A stretch of DNA of 45,133 bases from Candidatus Uhrbacteria bacterium (GTDB lineage Bacteria; Patescibacteriota; Patescibacteriia; UBA9934), in the NCBI GenBank assembly GCA_018673485.1, contig JABHCP010000008.1, positions 1 through 45,133 of the forward strand, written 5' to 3'. This document shows positions 1 through 45,133 of this stretch, piece by piece. The notes beneath the pieces are model-generated. The model was given only the letters and a program-made list of their open reading frames with translations, searched no databases and was not told the DNA's origin. Each line of letters begins with the position of its first letter. Position 1 is the stretch's first letter. Both the position numbers and the translations under genes were made by a program.

Positions 1-88
1 CTCGTACTTCTGTGAACGTTTCTTGCGGTAAGCTTCGTATGCCATAAATGAGGTATTTAAGAGCAATTCTTTGCCCAAACAACCTCAT
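1..88 (-). CDS. partial ORF running out of the window (5' end of a repeated gene?)
   Basis: On the minus strand an ATG at 88-86 opens a frame beginning MRLFGQRIALKYLIYGIR that stays open to the window edge. The identical frame occurs at 45039-45133. I do not recognise the protein. A short upstream frame (11 codons) ends in a TGATG overlap with this start, which would suit translational coupling. It could be the start of a multicopy mobile gene such as a transposase, but no transposase motif is visible in 29 codons. Confidence 0.3.
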   Translation of the reverse strand, partial: MRLFGQRIALKYLIYGIRSLPQETFTEVR

Positions 89-132
89 CACAGTTTATAT
101 GAACCGTCTACGATGTATCTCATCTTTTTCAG
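1..132. repeat. left copy of 132-bp terminal inverted repeat
   Basis: Bases 1-132 are the exact reverse complement of 44995-45126. The window extends 7 bases further at the right end. The inner border lies 5 bases from a 13-bp hairpin (138-168). Each copy holds the first part of the same open frame reading outward, so this may be the 5' end of a repeated gene where the assembly stopped, or true terminal inverted repeats. Confidence 0.9.
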
Positions 133-9740: not shown

Positions 9741-10268
9741 GTGGACAAGTTTATCAACTGGACTATGCAACGCGCCACACCGGCCGAAGCAGTCAAGCTC
9801 ATACTCGTCAGCCTGGTGGGACTCATTGCCTACGGGCAGATCAAGCTCCTCGTCGCAATGTTCATCGTGCAAGTCCCGCCGCCAGAGTCTTACCCTGAGA
9901 TGATTGGCGACATGATCATTGCCATGATTTTCTTCATCCCCATTCCAGCGATGGCTGAGGAACTACTCGGCAGAATGCTCCCAACTCTCATCGCCCTGCT
10001 CATCTTTAGTAGGCATCGCTCCGCAATCCTGCCGCTTATGATACTCTCACCGCTCGTATTTGCACTACTGCATGCTCTGGGCCCAATGAGTGCCATCATG
10101 GCTCTGTGGACCTACCTCCCTTTGGGGATCGTGTTACAGGTCATCTACCTCAAGTGCGGCGGCTGGAAAGGAAGCGGCGGAATCCTGACTGGGCTCCTGA
10201 GCTGCTGGGCCGTGCACATAGTGTACAACTGGGCATCCTTTGCATCGATGGTGCTCTACGCACAGTAG
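9741..10268 (+). CDS. CPBP/CAAX-type intramembrane protease homologue
   Basis: The 175-residue polytopic membrane protein has the CPBP metalloprotease motifs: EELLGR (EExxxR) near residue 73, FALLHALG with a candidate metal ligand near residue 110, and HIVYNW near the end. The GTG start follows GGAGGT at correct spacing. The gene is GC-rich, monocistronic, with its own promoter and a strong terminator (10288-10311), unlike its AT-richer neighbours. Family members cleave prenylated or bacteriocin-type substrates or act in self-immunity. The substrate here is unknown. Confidence 0.7.
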   Translation: MDKFINWTMQRATPAEAVKLILVSLVGLIAYGQIKLLVAMFIVQVPPPESYPEMIGDMIIAMIFFIPIPAMAEELLGRMLPTLIALLIFSRHRSAILPLMILSPLVFALLHALGPMSAIMALWTYLPLGIVLQVIYLKCGGWKGSGGILTGLLSCWAVHIVYNWASFASMVLYAQ

Positions 10269-15587: not shown

Positions 15588-16226
15588 CTACGCAGGAAGA
15601 ATTCGAATTGTAGCGAGTCCTGACTCATGCACATTGGCATATGCTAATCGCCACGAATCGTCGATATGAGCTAGTCCGATCCAGCCAATGCGGTCGTCTT
15701 GCCCTTCACGCCGATCATGGAAAAATCCGATCGTCCTTACTGTGAACCAGCGCCCTAGCGGGTGCATAGGCTCAAGAATTTCTAGAACGATATCTGAATT
15801 TCTGGCATAAATCATGGAGGCGGTGATCATATCGAGCCGACCAAAGCTTACGACTGCTACGTACTCAACTGACAAATTCAGACTCTCGGCAAGCTCGTGC
15901 ATCTCGTAACGCACAAGTGCCATCACATTTGCCGGATCCAACATCTGCCCGATCTCGTAGGCAAATCGCTGCTGGTGGTAATGGCAGCGCAGGGTGCTTA
16001 GCGAACTGTGCTCACGAGGTAGCCTACCAAAGAACTTGAAATGACTCTTACCATCTTGCTGCCATTTCATTATGCCCGTGATGCAAACTCTGTAGTGCCC
16101 GCGATCTGTACCGATGTATACACCCCTTGTTTCCCCTCGCAGCCCGGAATAGGCGGCAAAGACAAGGGTTTCAAAGTCTGGAATCTGAGTCATAGTGACC
16201 CATGACTTGAAACTTCTTCTTACCAT
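15588..16226 (-). CDS. GC-rich orphan protein (212 aa)
   Basis: I do not recognise this protein. The ATG at 16226 is preceded by GGAGGGGGAT, a strong Shine-Dalgarno, and TTGACA lies at 16295-16290 (minus strand). It appears soluble, with mixed alpha/beta composition, two cysteines and many aromatic residues (TRGVYIGTDRGHYRVCITGI, GRWFTVRTIGFF). Codons end in G or C more often than in the neighbours. The gene is monocistronic with its own terminator. It belongs to the orphan set described in the findings. Confidence 0.7.
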   Translation of the reverse strand: MVRRSFKSWVTMTQIPDFETLVFAAYSGLRGETRGVYIGTDRGHYRVCITGIMKWQQDGKSHFKFFGRLPREHSSLSTLRCHYHQQRFAYEIGQMLDPANVMALVRYEMHELAESLNLSVEYVAVVSFGRLDMITASMIYARNSDIVLEILEPMHPLGRWFTVRTIGFFHDRREGQDDRIGWIGLAHIDDSWRLAYANVHESGLATIRILPA

Positions 16227-16310
16227 ATCCCCCTCCAGGAATTGAAATTAAAAGAACCGGGAATTTATCCTGGCACTAAAATCACTAATTGTCAATACGT
16301 AAACACAAAC

Positions 16311-16330
16311 GGCGTCTCAGGTGAGACGCC
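16311..16330 (-). terminator. intrinsic terminator
   Basis: GGCGTCTCA and TGAGACGCC pair nearly completely. On the minus strand it is followed by GTTTGTGTTT and lies 30 bases past the 16360 gene. Confidence 0.75.
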
Positions 16331-16359
16331 GCACGAACGCGGGACGAACAAGGGCCATG

Positions 16360-16968
16360 CTACGCGCAGAGCGCGATGAAGACCGTAGGCTCGTCCTTCT
16401 TGAACCCGAGGCCAAGAGCTTCCTGCTGGACTATGAGCAGCGCCTTGTAATGCCCGAACTCATCATAACTTGCCGTAAGAGCCAATAGAATAGATAGAAA
16501 AATACTGTCCCCAAACCCGTTACTCAAGTGGCCCTCAATGTCTCCGAGGCCTTCATGAATGATGCACCAAAAGCTGTTTTCAAAAACTCCACTAAAGCTA
16601 CGCGAAAAGCTTTCACGAAGACTCTCGTTAAGGTTATATCGGACGCTAGGCAAGAGGCTCTTATCAAAACCATTACCGATGCTATCCGAAAGACTTCTCC
16701 TATAAACCTTCTGTGTCATCCAACGCGGTCGCTGCACGAGGCATGTGCAGCTTGCGAAAACAACCTCCGTGATCTCCTTACCCGTGGCCGCTGCCACAGC
16801 AGCACGGTAGCGCCCCTTATCAATCTCACCCTCAGGTTTGAGTGTAAAGGTGCCGATCTGCGCGATCCGTACCCAGGGTGCGAGCATCTGCTCGACTTCG
16901 GGCCAGATCTCCTGCCGGCCCTGTTGGATGAAAAGTTCCTTGAGAGGGGTCAGGTCGACTTTGGTCAT
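16360..16968 (-). CDS. GC-rich orphan protein with Ser-repeat segment (202 aa)
   Basis: The start at ATG 16968 is fixed by GGAGG seven bases upstream; a longer frame to 17013 lacks this. The middle has a recurring Ser-hydrophobic pattern (RRSLSDSIGNGFDKSLL, then NESLRESFSRSFSGVF), giving an amphipathic repeat with serines every 3-4 residues. The C-terminus is more hydrophobic. I do not recognise a family. It has its own promoter (17036-17064), an overlapping inverted repeat, and a terminator, so it forms an independent unit. Confidence 0.7.
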   Translation of the reverse strand: MTKVDLTPLKELFIQQGRQEIWPEVEQMLAPWVRIAQIGTFTLKPEGEIDKGRYRAAVAAATGKEITEVVFASCTCLVQRPRWMTQKVYRRSLSDSIGNGFDKSLLPSVRYNLNESLRESFSRSFSGVFENSFWCIIHEGLGDIEGHLSNGFGDSIFLSILLALTASYDEFGHYKALLIVQQEALGLGFKKDEPTVFIALCA

Positions 16969-17035
16969 GGTAGCCTCCAGGCTTGGGTTTGAAAGGGCGG
17001 TCACTCCTGGCATTATGCGCCAGAGAGAAGAAATA

Positions 17036-17707: not shown

Positions 17708-17735
17708 TTGACGCAAAATTTATAAATGGTACGAT
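17708..17735 (+). promoter_or_regulatory. promoter of the 17765 orphan gene
   Basis: TTGACG (17708-17713), 16-base spacer, TACGAT (17730-17735), followed by AGGAGG at 17755-17760. Confidence 0.6.
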
Positions 17736-17764
17736 CACCGAGCACCCCATACTCAGGAGGAATG

Positions 17765-18337
17765 ATGTCGACAGCTGCAAATATTCGCGACAAGATCCTT
17801 CCAGAGATTGGGGATCACATGTACCTTATCGGGAGCTCGATCGCAACGCTCAAAGCAGAAATCGAACTTATTAAAGGTATCGGCTTTGAAGGTGACTCGT
17901 TTGTAGTGCAAAGACAAAGTCTTGTAAAATTGCACATCGGTTCAAGGATGATACTACGCACGCTACGCCACATTGCCAGACGTTGCCGAAGGGACACCGT
18001 CTTTGACGTACTTGTCGCCGAATCGAACCTACCTAGCTACAATCCTGAGTTCACCACAGCTACAATATGGAAAATGGTGGCACATACGTTAAACGGTGCT
18101 CTCTATAATACGGGCGAGCAACGGATGTCCAAAGCCCTCAATGAGGTGCTCACCCCCGCTACATTATTTGCTGATGCCCTACAAGTTCAATCAAGCGTAT
18201 GTATCGGCATGCAATACGCTGCCATCGATACCTCTGAGTTGCAGACCATCGAAAACGCATTCGAACTACTTGAAGAGCAAGTCGGCATGCTATGGGACCT
18301 TTTCATGGCTCTGCACGACACGATCTCGACCCACTAA
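17765..18337 (+). CDS. GC-rich orphan helical protein (190 aa)
   Basis: The start at 17765 (MSTAANIRDK) fits the AGGAGG at 17755-17760 better than the adjacent ATG at 17762. The product is soluble and nearly all helical, with two cysteines late in the chain, and no family I recognise. Internal similarity is weak. It is a single gene with its own promoter and a hairpin after the stop, GC-rich relative to dnaJ and the membrane-protein gene beside it. Confidence 0.7.
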   Translation: MSTAANIRDKILPEIGDHMYLIGSSIATLKAEIELIKGIGFEGDSFVVQRQSLVKLHIGSRMILRTLRHIARRCRRDTVFDVLVAESNLPSYNPEFTTATIWKMVAHTLNGALYNTGEQRMSKALNEVLTPATLFADALQVQSSVCIGMQYAAIDTSELQTIENAFELLEEQVGMLWDLFMALHDTISTH

Positions 18338-20115: not shown

Positions 20116-20155
20116 TGACTTCACATAAGGTCCGATCGGACCTTATGTGAAGTCA
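20116..20155. repeat. 40-bp perfect palindrome, arm type B
   Basis: Centre GGTCCGATCGGACC, arms of 20 bases without mismatch. The centre and part of the arms resemble those at 44950-44993 and 13414-13455. Confidence 0.9.
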
Positions 20156-20237
20156 CTTCGTTATTTTAAAATCTCTATTTACTGCCTTTCTTACTTAAGG
20201 TTAGACACTTATCTGCACAATTCTTACACTATCAAAC

Positions 20238-34918: not shown

Positions 34919-36952
34919 TTATTTCTTACGAATTCCGTACAACCAGTGCTTTTGCGCTGGCTTCCAACCACTTACCCATTGAAGCAGAATACGCGTTACA
35001 AAGATTGCAGTCATCATTGAAACCAAGATTCCAATTGCTAGAGTTAGAGCAAATCCCTTAATAAACCCACTCAGTGTAAACAATACACCAGCCGCAATCA
35101 AGGTTGTTATGTTTCCGTCGCGAATTGAAGTCCAGGCACGTCGGAATCCTTCGTCAATCGCTGTTGATAAGTCACGTCCGCTCTTGAGCTCTTCTTTCAG
35201 ACGTTCAAAGATCAGAACGTTTGCGTCCACCGCCATTCCAAGTGACAGAATAAATCCAGCGATTCCAGAAAGCGTCATTGTTACTCCAAGCCACTTGTAA
35301 AGCGCTAGGTTAACTGATGTGTAAACAATTAATGCAATGATCGCGAGCAATCCAGATAATCTGTAATACGCAACCATGAATAGTGCCAGTAAAATAATTC
35401 CGATCATCGCCGCCTGAATACTACTTTCAAGTGAAACCTTTCCAAGTGTTGGCCCGACGGTCTGCTGGCTTAGTAGCTCGATTGGCACAGGAAGTGCACC
35501 AGCGTTTAAGCGCTGAGCTAATAACTTTGCCTCCTCAACTGTAAAGTCTCCGCTAATAGTTGCTTCACCTCCGTAAATAACATCTTGCACAACTGGAGTT
35601 GAGATCGCGGTGCCATCGAGGAAAATTCCAATTACTTCACCCACGTACTGCTCGGTCATTTCTTCAAACAATTGAGCGCCATCACCGTCAAAGTTTAATA
35701 GTACGTACGGAATTGTAGTATTTTGATCGAATCCAACTGCAGCTCTTTCAACGTTCTTTCCAGAAAGCTCAGTGTTTTCCCATGGATCAAGGTCCAAAAT
35801 GTCAGACTCTGTAGTCCACGGCATCTCGATGTGTGAAATCTCATACTGAGTTTCTGATCGTGAATCTGATCGATAAATAACGTGATAACCAAACTGAGTC
35901 TCGACTACACCTGAGATCGCGCCGTCTGAAAGTACAAATGCTGCGTCCTCAAAAGGTTCAACCATCATTCCTTCCACAACCCAATCTAAGTAACCTCCAC
36001 TTGGTCCACTTGGACCATCTGAATACTCAATTGCCTTATCTGCAAAGTTCGACGCCGTCACCTCAGAGGCAACCTGCTCTGCTAAAGTCCAGGCTTCATC
36101 AGTAGATCGATCTGCCTCACAACCTTCAGACTCGCTGTGACAAATTAAAATATGTGAAAGTTCGACCTCCTCTGATTCTTGAGTCGCAGTATAATTTACA
36201 ATATGCAATGTTGAATTGTATTCATACAATCCATCAATTACGCCTTCCCCAAGTCGATCATCCTGTATCTCTTGTGCGAGCTCGCCAAAGGCTGGATCGT
36301 TCTCATTGATATATCCGTAATACCCTTTACTAAGTGATGTACTTGAAATTGAAAGCTCTCGCGCCAACTCACCAAAATCCTCACCCGCAAGCGCTCTATC
36401 AAGTGCTTCAAGCGCTGCTGATTCTTCTTGTGTTTGAGCTTCGTCCATCTGTGTCTGCTCATCTGCTGTTAGTTCAACATCCTCATCGAATGTCGCTTTC
36501 AATGTTTTAAACTCTAAAATCGGCGTTTCACCAATCAAACCTACCGCCTGCTCTACATCAAAAATACCAGCAAGCTCAACAATGATTCTATAATGATCAC
36601 CATTAATATTAGTTTGAACAATTGGCTCGGAAACTCCAAAAGCATTAACACGCCTTTCAATAACATCACGCACTCCCTCAATGGCAGTACCGCGATCAGT
36701 TGACTCGATATCAGACATGTCAGCCTCATAAACCAAGTGAACGCCACCTTGGAGGTCTAATCCCAATTTGAAGTCCTCTTCATTAAACTCAGGCATATTC
36801 ATGCCCACAGTATCCTCTATGCTACGCGCTGCTGTGTTCCAAATATTAGGAAATGCAGCTGAGCCTGTTAAAACAAAAACAACGGCTATGGCAACCAATG
36901 CACTATAAAGCCCTCGTCGTGTACGAAACCCTCGTTTTTTATCCATAATCAA
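34919..36952 (-). CDS. secD: SecD with inserted parvulin-type prolyl isomerase region
   Basis: 677 residues. Standard parts are TM1 (about 14-34), FKLGLDLQGGVHLVYEADM, IEGVRDVIERRVNAFGVSEP, and the C-terminal five membrane segments with AMAVDANVLIFERLKEE. Between the end of the first half of the P1 domain (ILEFKT, 145-150) and its resumption (NTELSGKNVERAAVG, about 393) lie some 240 extra residues. Residues 264-362 read as parvulin: VELSHILI, then GPSGGYLDWVVEGMMVEPFEDAAF, then VVETQFGYHVIY. Residues 180-255 look like a degenerate second copy. It should place a folding domain on the outer face of the export machinery. Confidence 0.92.
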   Translation of the reverse strand: MIMDKKRGFRTRRGLYSALVAIAVVFVLTGSAAFPNIWNTAARSIEDTVGMNMPEFNEEDFKLGLDLQGGVHLVYEADMSDIESTDRGTAIEGVRDVIERRVNAFGVSEPIVQTNINGDHYRIIVELAGIFDVEQAVGLIGETPILEFKTLKATFDEDVELTADEQTQMDEAQTQEESAALEALDRALAGEDFGELARELSISSTSLSKGYYGYINENDPAFGELAQEIQDDRLGEGVIDGLYEYNSTLHIVNYTATQESEEVELSHILICHSESEGCEADRSTDEAWTLAEQVASEVTASNFADKAIEYSDGPSGPSGGYLDWVVEGMMVEPFEDAAFVLSDGAISGVVETQFGYHVIYRSDSRSETQYEISHIEMPWTTESDILDLDPWENTELSGKNVERAAVGFDQNTTIPYVLLNFDGDGAQLFEEMTEQYVGEVIGIFLDGTAISTPVVQDVIYGGEATISGDFTVEEAKLLAQRLNAGALPVPIELLSQQTVGPTLGKVSLESSIQAAMIGIILLALFMVAYYRLSGLLAIIALIVYTSVNLALYKWLGVTMTLSGIAGFILSLGMAVDANVLIFERLKEELKSGRDLSTAIDEGFRRAWTSIRDGNITTLIAAGVLFTLSGFIKGFALTLAIGILVSMMTAIFVTRILLQWVSGWKPAQKHWLYGIRKK

Positions 36953-42274: not shown

Positions 42275-42283
42275 ATTATACCC
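42275..42283 (-). promoter_or_regulatory. -10 promoter of the exporter operon
   Basis: Minus strand GGGTATAAT (hexamer 42280-42275), with no convincing -35. It overlaps the divergent promoter at 42289, so both cannot be used freely at once. Confidence 0.5.
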
Positions 42284-42288
42284 TATCA

Positions 42289-42317
42289 TTGACAAAAATG
42301 CGATTATGTGATAGATT
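42289..42317 (+). promoter_or_regulatory. promoter, copy 1 of a duplicated 38-bp promoter
   Basis: TTGACA, 17-base spacer, TAGATT. The 38 bases from 42289 are identical to those from 43066. Confidence 0.85.
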
Positions 42318-42377
42318 ACTGCGTCAACAAAGCTAAAACATTTCCTCAGAGGGCGGTATACAGCCGCCGGAGACTTA

Positions 42378-42944
42378 ATGAAGCGAATCATCGCTCTCAC
42401 CTTCGTGCTCGTCATGAGCACTATGTTCAACCCCCTACCCGTCATGGCTGAAACGCCAACGGCAGACAAGGCGGCAGGGGTCTGTAGCCCGATGCCAACC
42501 CTGGACAAACAGGCTGTGACCTCCGCCCTTGCCGCGGGTGAGCAGGTCACGCCGATGGTCGAGGTGGCCATCGAGGCCCTCCAGGACTGTAACGGCAAGA
42601 TCCAAGCCGTGCTGGACTGGGTCGGACCTGACAACTCAGAGGAGCTGAAGCGACTGAAGGCACAAAAGGCCTTCGTTGCAGAGCAGCTGGCTACTCTGCA
42701 GCTCATGCTCCTCATGGATTCCAAGCTCGAGAATCTGCGCAAGCTCTTGTACCCCGACGAGCTCCTAAAGATCGTATTCGGCCTGGACTCCAAGTTCGTA
42801 CGGGAGTTCAGGGACTCTCCCACTCAAGCTTGTGAGGACCATCAGCTTTCGGAAGAAGAGTGCGAAAAGCTCAAGAACCTTCCTAAGCAGACCAGTCTAT
42901 ACGACCTCGTAATGGAAGCACGGACAGTCCTGCTCGATCGCTGA
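42378..42944 (+). CDS. secreted GC-rich orphan with C-x34-C module (188 aa)
   Basis: A signal peptide (MKRIIALTFVLVMSTMFNP, cleavage near VMA-ET) precedes the mature chain. C36 and C71 are 35 residues apart and bracket a helical segment beginning CSPMPTLD and ending ALQDC. A second pair, C152 and C162, lies near the C-terminus. The same module occurs twice in the protein at 43159. GGAGA precedes the ATG. The fold is probably a disulfide-closed helical hairpin. I know of no named family. Confidence 0.75.
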   Translation: MKRIIALTFVLVMSTMFNPLPVMAETPTADKAAGVCSPMPTLDKQAVTSALAAGEQVTPMVEVAIEALQDCNGKIQAVLDWVGPDNSEELKRLKAQKAFVAEQLATLQLMLLMDSKLENLRKLLYPDELLKIVFGLDSKFVREFRDSPTQACEDHQLSEEECEKLKNLPKQTSLYDLVMEARTVLLDR

Positions 42945-42977
42945 ACTAGACCGATCGCACAACGACTCGCTCCAGAT

Positions 42978-43020
42978 CCCCACCTTGCCCCTCGCGTCAT
43001 GCGGTGGGGCTCTTCGTTTG
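42978..43020 (+). terminator. intrinsic terminator
   Basis: CCCCACC and GGTGGGG pair across an 18-base interval, followed by CTCTTCGTTTGTG. Confidence 0.65.
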
Positions 43021-43065
43021 TGTTTAATATTTAATCAATATTGACTAGATATAGTAGCCCTATGC

Positions 43066-43094
43066 TTGACAAAAATGCGATTATGTGATAGATT
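43066..43094 (+). promoter_or_regulatory. promoter, copy 2 of the duplicated promoter
   Basis: TTGACA, 17-base spacer, TAGATT; identity to 42289 extends 9 bases beyond the -10. The following leader is also similar (AGCTGAAACATTC against AGCTAAAACATTT). Confidence 0.85.
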
Positions 43095-43158
43095 ACTGCG
43101 TCAGCCTAGCTGAAACATTCCCCCAAGAGAGTGGCCTAAAGCCGCCGAAGGAAACCAA

Positions 43159-43908
43159 ATGATGCGGACCACCGCCATCATGAGCGCGCTCGTCCTGAGC
43201 GCAGTGTTCAACCCCCAGCAGGCGCGCGCCGAGTTCGACATGCTGCGCGATCACGCGGAGAGCGTCGATCTCGAGGCGGCCTGCGGGCCGATCCCGCAGA
43301 TCGACAGTGAACTGCTGATGGCGGCCTTCGAGGCCAACCTGCCCATCTCCGAGTTCATCGACCCCACCCTGCAGGCCCTGCGCGCCTGCGATGCTCGGCA
43401 TCGCACCCTGAAGGCCGAGCTCAAGGAGCAGGCCGGTGGTCGGTTCTCTGAGCAGACCAACCCGGCGATCCTGGCGCAGTGGCGTCACTCGGTCGACATC
43501 AGCCTGGCGCTGAGCTACTACATGACCGAGCTCAGCGGACTGTCCATGCGCGACAGCTACACCCATCTGATGGGTGAGCCCAGCGTCAAGGACTGCATGG
43601 CTTCCGTGCCGCCCCTGGACCGCGAGGCCCTCAAGGCAGGCGTGCAGGTCAGCGACGACATCGAGCCCCTGCTCAACGCCACCCGCACCAAGTTGCAGGA
43701 ATGCAGCAAGCTGGCGGCACAGACGGCCGATCGTCGCTACGAAGCGCTGGTCCAGACTGCTGAGGCCATGGGCCACGGTGACTCCGTGACGGAGAAAGCC
43801 GAGCAAGCCTGGAGCAACGCCCTCCTCCAGAGCTTCGTCATCGACGAAGCTCTCAGCGAGCTTGCGTTCGTGGAGATCAGCTACGGCCTCAGCCAACTCC
43901 AGAACTAG
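43159..43908 (+). CDS. secreted GC-rich orphan with two C-x34/35-C modules (249 aa)
   Basis: A signal peptide (MMRTTAIMSALVLSAVFNP, cleavage near ARA-EF) is followed by two modules: C42 to C77 (CGPIPQID ... ALRAC) and C146 to C182 (CMASVPPLD ... KLQEC). Both align with the single module of the 42378 protein. The rest is helical. GAAGGA precedes the ATG. Together with the duplicated promoter this shows a tandem gene duplication followed by strong divergence. Confidence 0.75.
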   Translation: MMRTTAIMSALVLSAVFNPQQARAEFDMLRDHAESVDLEAACGPIPQIDSELLMAAFEANLPISEFIDPTLQALRACDARHRTLKAELKEQAGGRFSEQTNPAILAQWRHSVDISLALSYYMTELSGLSMRDSYTHLMGEPSVKDCMASVPPLDREALKAGVQVSDDIEPLLNATRTKLQECSKLAAQTADRRYEALVQTAEAMGHGDSVTEKAEQAWSNALLQSFVIDEALSELAFVEISYGLSQLQN

Positions 43909-43981
43909 TCCGACATCTTGGAACTGTAACGGTCATGACAAAGGCGCCTAATAAGTGCGCATGACCCGAGTTCCCCTCCGA

Positions 43982-44010
43982 CCCCGTCACACTGTGACGG
44001 GGTTTCGCAT
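43982..44010 (+). terminator. intrinsic terminator
   Basis: CCCCGTCACA and TGTGACGGGG pair, followed by TTTCGCATT. Confidence 0.85.
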
Positions 44011-44014
44011 TACA

Positions 44015-44043
44015 TTGACTTTTTAGTATATTTACCCTATGTT
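44015..44043 (+). promoter_or_regulatory. promoter of the 44090 gene
   Basis: TTGACT, 17-base spacer, TATGTT. The -10 overlaps an ATG at 44039, so that ATG cannot be the start. Confidence 0.7.
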
Positions 44044-44089
44044 TATATCTGCTTTGCGCAACACCGTGCGGCAGTTCCGGGAGGACATT

Positions 44090-44854
44090 ATGCACAGCCC
44101 CTTCATTCGTCTACTCACGCTCATCGCCTTCATCACCTTCCCCTCTGCGCTCTGGGCGCAAGGCCACATGACACCGACCATCAACGACAGCGACGTCGAA
44201 GCTGTGATCGCCGAACTCGACTGGACCAATCTCGACAGCAAGATCGGCCAGTACTGCAACGACATGCAGACCAAGGCCGACCTGCAGATGTGCCACGCCT
44301 ACGAGGGCGCGCTCCTGCTGTCGCTCAGTGAGGGTGCCAAACAGCTGAGTCTCCAAATTCAGCTCATGGCGGCCAGCGACTACAGCGAATCCGTGAACGT
44401 CATGAACACACCGCAGAGCTTCGACTACTACATCGAAGTAGTGGACAACTGGGTGATCGCGATCGAAGGCTACGCTGACGACCTGGAGAAAAAAGCCCAG
44501 GTCTACGGTCCTATGGTCTCCAAGGCTGGCAGCCCAATCGAAGCCACCAAGGTGATGCTCACGGAGGGCCAGCTCGCGCAGGCCGACGCCGCCGTGCTGG
44601 AGTTCATCAAGGATGTGCGCTACGAGCATGCCTTTGGTATCGTGATGGCTCAAGTAGCCGGCTTCGATATCAACCAGGCACGACGCAAAGTAGACTTCTT
44701 GAACATCGACGACCTCGACATCGGGGCTCTGGAGATTCTGGGCTACACCTTCCGATCCGAAGAGCCCAGCCGCTACGAACAGCTGTACTCTCCGCACCCA
44801 CCATGGCACGGCACGGTCGACCCACCTGCCAAAGGTAGCGACCGTCGGCGCTAG
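44090..44854 (+). CDS. secreted GC-rich orphan (254 aa)
   Basis: ATG 44090 (MHSPFIRLLTLIAFITFPSA) follows GGGAGG by 7 bases. The signal peptide is cleaved near LWA-QG. The mature protein is helical, with a C-x11-C pair (QYCNDMQTKADLQMCHAYEG) and no copy of the C-x34-C module. The tail after residue 235 is Pro/Arg-rich. It completes a row of three secreted orphans with similar terminators. Confidence 0.7.
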   Translation: MHSPFIRLLTLIAFITFPSALWAQGHMTPTINDSDVEAVIAELDWTNLDSKIGQYCNDMQTKADLQMCHAYEGALLLSLSEGAKQLSLQIQLMAASDYSESVNVMNTPQSFDYYIEVVDNWVIAIEGYADDLEKKAQVYGPMVSKAGSPIEATKVMLTEGQLAQADAAVLEFIKDVRYEHAFGIVMAQVAGFDINQARRKVDFLNIDDLDIGALEILGYTFRSEEPSRYEQLYSPHPPWHGTVDPPAKGSDRRR

Positions 44855-44878
44855 TGCCCATCAAGTCCGCTCCTCAAA

Positions 44879-44903
44879 CCCCGTCATCTGGCGGGGTTTC
44901 GCG
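44879..44903 (+). terminator. intrinsic terminator
   Basis: CCCCGTC and GGCGGGG pair (one G-U) with loop ATCT, followed by TTTCGC. It resembles the terminator at 43982. Confidence 0.75.
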
Positions 44904-44949: not shown

Positions 44950-44993
44950 GGTGGCTTCACTAAAGGTCCGATCGGACCTTTAGTGAAGCCACC
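44950..44993. repeat. 44-bp perfect palindrome centred on CGATCG
   Basis: Arms of 22 bases without mismatch. It ends one base before the terminal inverted repeat begins. The centre GGTCCGATCGGACC is shared with 20116-20155. Confidence 0.9.
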
Positions 44994-44994
44994 A

Positions 44995-45126
44995 CTGAAA
45001 AAGATGAGATACATCGTAGACGGTTCATATAAACTGTGATGAGGTTGTTTGGGCAAAGAATTGCTCTTAAATACCTCATTTATGGCATACGAAGCTTACC
45101 GCAAGAAACGTTCACAGAAGTACGAG
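44995..45126. repeat. right copy of 132-bp terminal inverted repeat
   Basis: Exact reverse complement of 1-132; see the left copy. Confidence 0.9.
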
Positions 45127-45133
45127 CCAGCGC
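45039..45133 (+). CDS. partial ORF running out of the window (second copy)
   Basis: ATG 45039 opens the same frame as 88-1 on the minus strand, continuing three codons further (EVRAS) and still open. It is preceded by an 11-codon frame from 45004 ending TGATG. Confidence 0.3.
   Translation, partial: MRLFGQRIALKYLIYGIRSLPQETFTEVRAS

What the first reader, a model, noticed from the sequence alone, without database searches (positions are those of the whole stretch)
42289..43908. Tandem secreted paralogues with a repeated C-x34-C module
Two signal-peptide proteins share a module starting C-x-P-x-P-x-[LI]-D and closing with L-[QR]-x-C, 34 to 35 residues between cysteines. The first protein has one copy, the second two. 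The module looks like a disulfide-closed helical hairpin and fits no family I know. Identical promoters confirm duplication while the proteins have diverged far, as expected for surface proteins under diversifying selection.
Basis: partly seen in the sequence, partly recalled or inferred. Interest (0 to 1): 0.7.

Follow-up and report, generated by a model that had tools for sequence, protein, structure and literature searches.

The report
Orphan secreted proteins in GC-rich island
Two neighbouring genes of a tiny-genome bacterium encode related, probably exported, all-helical proteins that match no known family, and they belong to a larger, fast-changing set of unusually GC-rich single-gene units that share one distinctive type of promoter.

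Summary
The two signal-peptide ORFs and the cysteine spacing (34, 34, 35) are real. P1 and the first P2 module are clearly homologous, and so are their promoters, leaders and signal peptides. The third copy is weak: it breaks the C-x-P-x-P motif (E = 0.012 in a small database). Only the C-x34-C core is alike in sequence; low-confidence models (pLDDT 62-64) suggest an all-helical unit of about 100 residues, not a closed hairpin. No homologue turned up. Diversifying selection is unsupported (synonymous sites saturated, no orthologues).

The context matters more. P1-P3 are single-gene units of GC3 0.72-0.88 (neighbours about 0.4) in an island between macA and secA, cut in the assembly by an insertion sequence. 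A same-genus species has a different GC-rich set there; another genome has none. The promoter class (TTGACAAAA-N6-TTNTGTNATA) occurs 15 times in this genome (reversed control 0); 12 sites precede GC-rich units. In five other genomes of the family 7 of 8 sites do, five with signal-peptide or lipoprotein N-termini.

Best reading: lineage-specific exported cargo of a promoter-marked, GC-rich accessory gene class; a role at the cell surface is inferred only.

The parts
42289..42317 (+). Promoter of P1, TTGACA-17-TAGATT with TG before the -10; class TTGACAAAA-N6-TTNTGTNATA
42378..42944 (+). P1, 188 aa, signal-peptide protein, GC3 0.72, no known family for the module
42378..42449 (+). P1 predicted signal peptide (MKRIIALTFVLVMSTMFNPLPVMA), by eye; alike in P2
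42483..42590 (+). Module M1, C36 to C71 (C-x34-C)
   Evidence: z 9.6 against M2a
42786..42890 (+). C-terminal stretch resembling the NHLP/Os1348 (NF038399) helical mini-domain, below its curated cut-off; holds C152 and C162
   Evidence: E 8e-6 / 2e-6; 25.8-27.7 bits against cut-off 40; shuffles and reversal not matched
42990..43019 (+). Terminator-like hairpin of P1
   Evidence: terminator counts in this region not above shuffles
43066..43094 (+). Promoter of P2, same core as P1
43159..43908 (+). P2, 249 aa, signal-peptide protein, GC3 0.88, no known family
43282..43389 (+). Module M2a, C42 to C77
43594..43704 (+). Probable module M2b, C146 to C182 (C-x35-C), weakly supported
43980..44006 (+). 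Hairpin CCCCGTCA-CAC-TGTGACGGGG followed by TTTCGC, likely terminator of P2
   Evidence: by eye; similar to the hairpin after P3 (D6/D7)
44015..44043 (+). Promoter-like site of P3 (TTGACT-17-TATGTT)
44090..44854 (+). P3, 254 aa, third signal-peptide GC-rich orphan, unrelated to P1/P2
44878..44900 (+). Likely terminator hairpin of P3
44950..44993 (.). 44-nt perfect palindrome, dispersed in many copies in the genome
44995..45133 (+). Left end of an insertion sequence (same boundary at window start, C1 and C8); a transposase C-terminus lies at the end of C6
40366..42273 (-). macA-like membrane-fusion gene, the conserved left border of the island

Best explanation
P1 and P2 are lineage-specific exported proteins carried as single-gene cargo in a hypervariable, GC-rich island between macA and secA. 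Shown: each gene has its own promoter, P1 and P2 of one recurrent class; the ORFs have foreign composition; P1 and P2 share promoter, leader, signal peptide and one C-x34-C module by duplication; the content of the site differs between species and the contig is cut there by an insertion sequence; promoters of this class precede GC-rich orphan units through this genome and in five other genomes of the family. Inferred: strong transcription, Sec export, oxidation of the module cysteines by the VKOR pathway so that each bond staples a short N-terminal segment onto a long helix of a roughly 100-residue helical unit, and a job at or outside the cell surface, such as contact with a host or neighbouring cells. 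Gene turnover comes from gain and loss of whole promoter-gene-terminator units plus local duplication.
For: GC3 0.72-0.88 against about 0.4 for neighbours. secA is followed by GC-rich units at the end of C6; C6 ends in a transposase C-terminus with a matching inverted repeat and C17 in an insertion-sequence start. Same-genus G001 has macA - GC-rich island - secA with a different signal-peptide gene, while two other small island genes are homologous to units on C6 (z 20.3 and 14.4). G008 has one GC-rich signal-peptide gene beside macA; G009 has none. Promoter class: 15 sites against 0 reversed; 12 of 15 followed by GC >= 0.53 where 2.2% of window background reaches that; 7 of 8 sites in five other family genomes likewise at GC >= 0.54, five with signal-peptide or lipoprotein N-termini by eye. 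VKOR present. Consistent all-helical models.
Against: Export, expression and disulfides are unproven. Structure models are of low confidence. The join of C17 and C6 is inferred from synteny and insertion-sequence ends, not from reads. P1-P3 themselves have no relatives, so their turnover is seen only through the site. Not all units of the promoter class encode exported proteins. Background GC came from this contig only, the sites are not fully independent, and one of the sites in other genomes (L054) lies in a generally GC-rich locus.
Confidence: 0.62

Rival explanations
1. Surface antigens or adhesins under diversifying selection.
For: Signal peptides, duplication and strong divergence of mature parts; the site differs between species.
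Against: Synonymous sites saturated and pN below pS; no orthologues to test; no membrane or wall anchor seen; whole-gene replacement rather than codon change explains the variation at the site.
Confidence: 0.15
2. Secreted antagonistic or host-manipulating effectors, P1 with an NHLP-like tail and macAB next door as exporter.
For: P1 C-terminus matches NF038399 at E 2e-6, shuffles do not; macAB-type genes adjoin.
Against: Score is below the curated cut-off; no modification enzyme was noted beside it; Sec-type leaders make MacAB export unnecessary; macA is kept in G009, which lacks the island.
Confidence: 0.15
3. Assembly or binning artefact: a GC-rich contaminant fused to the contig end.
For: Location at a contig end, abrupt GC change, 2.6% estimated contamination.
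Against: The promoter class is spread over many contigs; G001 has a GC-rich island at the same site inside a contig; C6 joins such units to secA.
Confidence: 0.04
4. M2b is a chance match, so there are only two modules (one per protein) and no internal repeat.
For: Motif broken; a pre-selected unrelated protein outscores it.
Against: Beats every shuffle of its own sequence; similar helix order in the model.
Confidence: 0.3

Closest known systems
Genomic islands rich in orphan genes
   Same: Foreign composition, variable content at a fixed site, insertion sequence inside
   Different: GC-rich in a lower-GC genome, and built of single-gene units with their own promoters, many of one shared class, on many contigs
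Integron gene cassettes
   Same: Arrays of small single-gene units with high turnover
   Different: Units carry their own promoters and lie in both orientations; integrase and attC were not searched for
Disulfide-stapled helical hairpins (CHCH twin CX9C, alpha-hairpinins)
   Same: Cysteine-bearing helical module
   Different: One cysteine pair per module, 34-35 apart, second cysteine in mid-helix in the model
NHLP/Os1348 leader-like mini-domain (NF038399)
   Same: P1 residues 137-171 match, E 2e-6
   Different: Below curated cut-off; at the C-terminus of a signal-peptide protein, with a cysteine pair

Membership tests
NHLP/Os1348 family (NF038399) | Score above the curated cut-off (40 bits) | tested here: not met
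   25.8 and 27.7 bits
NHLP/Os1348 family (NF038399) | RiPP leader with nearby modification enzymes | not tested
   None noted among neighbours, but no systematic search was made
CHCH / alpha-hairpinin | Two CXnC motifs giving two bonds per hairpin | tested here: not met
   Single C...C pair per module
Any Pfam, NCBIfam, PHROG or PDB family for the P1/P2 modules | Significant profile or sequence match | tested here: not met
   (PDB by sequence for P2 only); Foldseek nothing at E <= 0.001
Genomic island / hypervariable site | Composition differs from the genome | tested here: met
Genomic island / hypervariable site | Different or empty content at the syntenic site in relatives | tested here: met
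   G001, G008, G009
Integron cassette array | attC recombination sites and an integrase | not tested
   No search was made
Exported disulfide-bonded protein | Oxidised cysteines outside the membrane | not testable with these tools
   Only indirect: signal peptides, paired cysteines, VKOR present

The most novel reading that the evidence does not exclude
This bacterial family keeps a dispersed, fast-turning accessory gene set in which GC-rich orphan genes, often exported, are each placed under one near-stereotyped promoter (an ACAAAA-N6-TTTTGT dyad across -35 and extended -10). The set would act as one regulon and as a standing supply of new surface or contact proteins, with the P1/P2 Cys module as one of its newest inventions.
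Probability: 0.3. Interest if true: 0.72.

Novelty: new variant of a known kind. Interest (0 to 1): 0.5.

Why it matters
How such cells interact with hosts is a long-open question; a pattern that lists candidate contact proteins makes it testable. It would also pose a clear puzzle: how GC-rich coding sequence repeatedly comes to sit behind a host-type AT-rich promoter.

Tried and rejected
Homologues of P1/P2: none in order genomes (73), class sample (381; three hits at E about 0.005 are chance level; the two inspected closely are a C39-peptidase-like protein and a reading frame inside a large protein), GTDB pattern scan, viral contigs, plasmids (P2 only) or phages. The GTDB scan also failed to find macA relatives, so its null is weak. 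P3: none. Extending the repeat beyond Cys2 by sequence failed. Contamination was considered and rejected. dN/dS is uninformative. Fold searches gave only generic helical bundles. Paper searches found nothing on this gene class.

Full report
What is there. The window is the whole of contig C17 (45,133 b) of a 1.03-Mb, 99%-complete genome. From about 42,280 to 44,900 GC rises to 0.5-0.6 from 0.43, and three + strand genes follow: P1 42378-42944, P2 43159-43908 and P3 44090-44854. Their GC3 is 0.72, 0.88 and 0.79; most other genes on the contig lie near 0.4. P1 and P2 have the cysteines described, spaced 34, 34 and 35.

Strength of the repeat. M1 and M2a are homologous beyond reasonable doubt (z 9.6), and their genes share promoter, leader and signal peptide. 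M2b is only probable: its opening motif differs, it scores E = 0.012 against an M1+M2a profile, and one unrelated protein that had been pre-selected from 381 genomes scores higher. After Cys2 there is no sequence similarity. AlphaFold, with two-sequence alignments and mean pLDDT 62-64, gives the same helix order in P1 and both halves of P2: short helix with Cys1, turn, short helix, long helix with Cys2 inside, long helix. This suggests a unit of about 100 residues and argues against a simple end-closed hairpin, with low confidence. P1 has a further C-terminal stretch like the NHLP/Os1348 mini-domain, below the curated cut-off but not reproduced by eight shuffles or a reversal.

No relatives. 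Profile searches in Pfam, NCBIfam and PHROGs, a PDB sequence search for P2, 73 order genomes, 381 class genomes, GTDB, viral, plasmid and phage collections gave nothing credible. The module family is, on this evidence, confined to this one genome.

Selection. Between P1 and P2, pS is 0.59, the same as for randomly paired codons, and pN is 0.41. Synonymous sites are saturated, so the paralogues cannot show diversifying selection; the claim remains untested rather than disproved.

The island. In G001, of the same genus, macA and secA flank a 2.2-kb GC-rich stretch with a 246-aa signal-peptide protein unrelated to P1/P2 and two other small genes. In G009 macA adjoins secA directly; in G008 one GC-rich signal-peptide gene sits beside macA, but secA is not next to it. 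In the window's own genome secA is on C6, followed by GC-rich units with their own promoters and hairpins, two of them homologous to units of the G001 island (z 20.3 and 14.4). C6 ends in the C-terminus of a transposase (motif read by eye) with an inverted repeat (AAGATGA-N2-ACATCGTAGAC) matching the one at the end of C17; C17 ends in the start of an insertion sequence whose boundary recurs at the C17 start, the C1 start and the C8 end. The simplest order is macA - P1 - P2 - P3 - insertion sequence - further units - secA. This join is inferred.

A promoter class marks such genes. TTGACAAAA-N6-TTNTGTNATA (one mismatch allowed) occurs 15 times in the genome and never in reversed form. Twelve of the 15 are followed by 400 bases of GC 0.53 or more, a level that 2.2% of windows on this contig reach. 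The stricter pattern in five other genomes of the family gave 8 sites, 7 of them before units of GC 0.54 or more, with five N-termini that read as signal peptides or lipoproteins; one of the seven (L054) lies in a locus that is GC-rich throughout. A repeat-rich lipoprotein (DADAD repeats) follows such a promoter in both G000 (C8) and G001. The pattern was seeded from the P1/P2 promoters and two other sites, and neighbouring sites are not independent, so an exact p-value should not be leaned on; the size of the effect and its recurrence in other genomes carry the claim.

How it probably works. Shown: gene structure, composition, duplication, variable site, promoter class. Inferred: the proteins are strongly made, leave through Sec, and have their module cysteines paired by the VKOR pathway, whose gene is present. 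Their task at or outside the surface is a guess from export, turnover and the lifestyle usual for such small genomes.

Verdict. Real paralogues and a new orphan module, one clear duplication and one probable repeat.

Noticed in passing
L017 3286-5130 (genome contig C20): Three successive units, each with a promoter of the same class; terminator-like GC-rich hairpins with T-runs were seen by eye at their ends. No convincing ORF, GC about 0.55, no Rfam match at E <= 1, no tRNA/tmRNA; the first two fold far better than shuffles (z -4.6 and -5.8): candidate unknown structured RNAs.
   Followed up: partly
window 44950-44993: 44-nt perfect palindrome dispersed at about a dozen places in the genome, including 20116-20162 of this window; possibly a bidirectional terminator or repeat element.
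   Followed up: no
window 1-132 and 44995-45133: Both ends of the contig are the same insertion-sequence end, as are the C1 start and C8 end; it explains the assembly breaks.
   Followed up: yes
L026 from 146 (contig C8) and L055 from 1500 (G001): GC-rich lipoprotein genes with long DADADT-type repeats behind the same promoter class in two species.
   Followed up: no
L068 6511-9690 (contig C6): Small helical orphan family in the island (L068 6511, 7032, 7790 and a G001 gene) and a 97-aa cysteine-containing protein shared with G001.
   Followed up: partly
window 34919-36952: One ORF joins PPIC-type rotamase and SecD/SecF domains, an unusual fusion.
   Followed up: no
window 9741-10268, 15588-17013, 17726-18337: Further ORFs with raised GC3 (0.52-0.70); the three of them scanned (15588-16226, 16360-17013, 17726-18337) have no clear Pfam family; may be more units of the same kind.
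   Followed up: no
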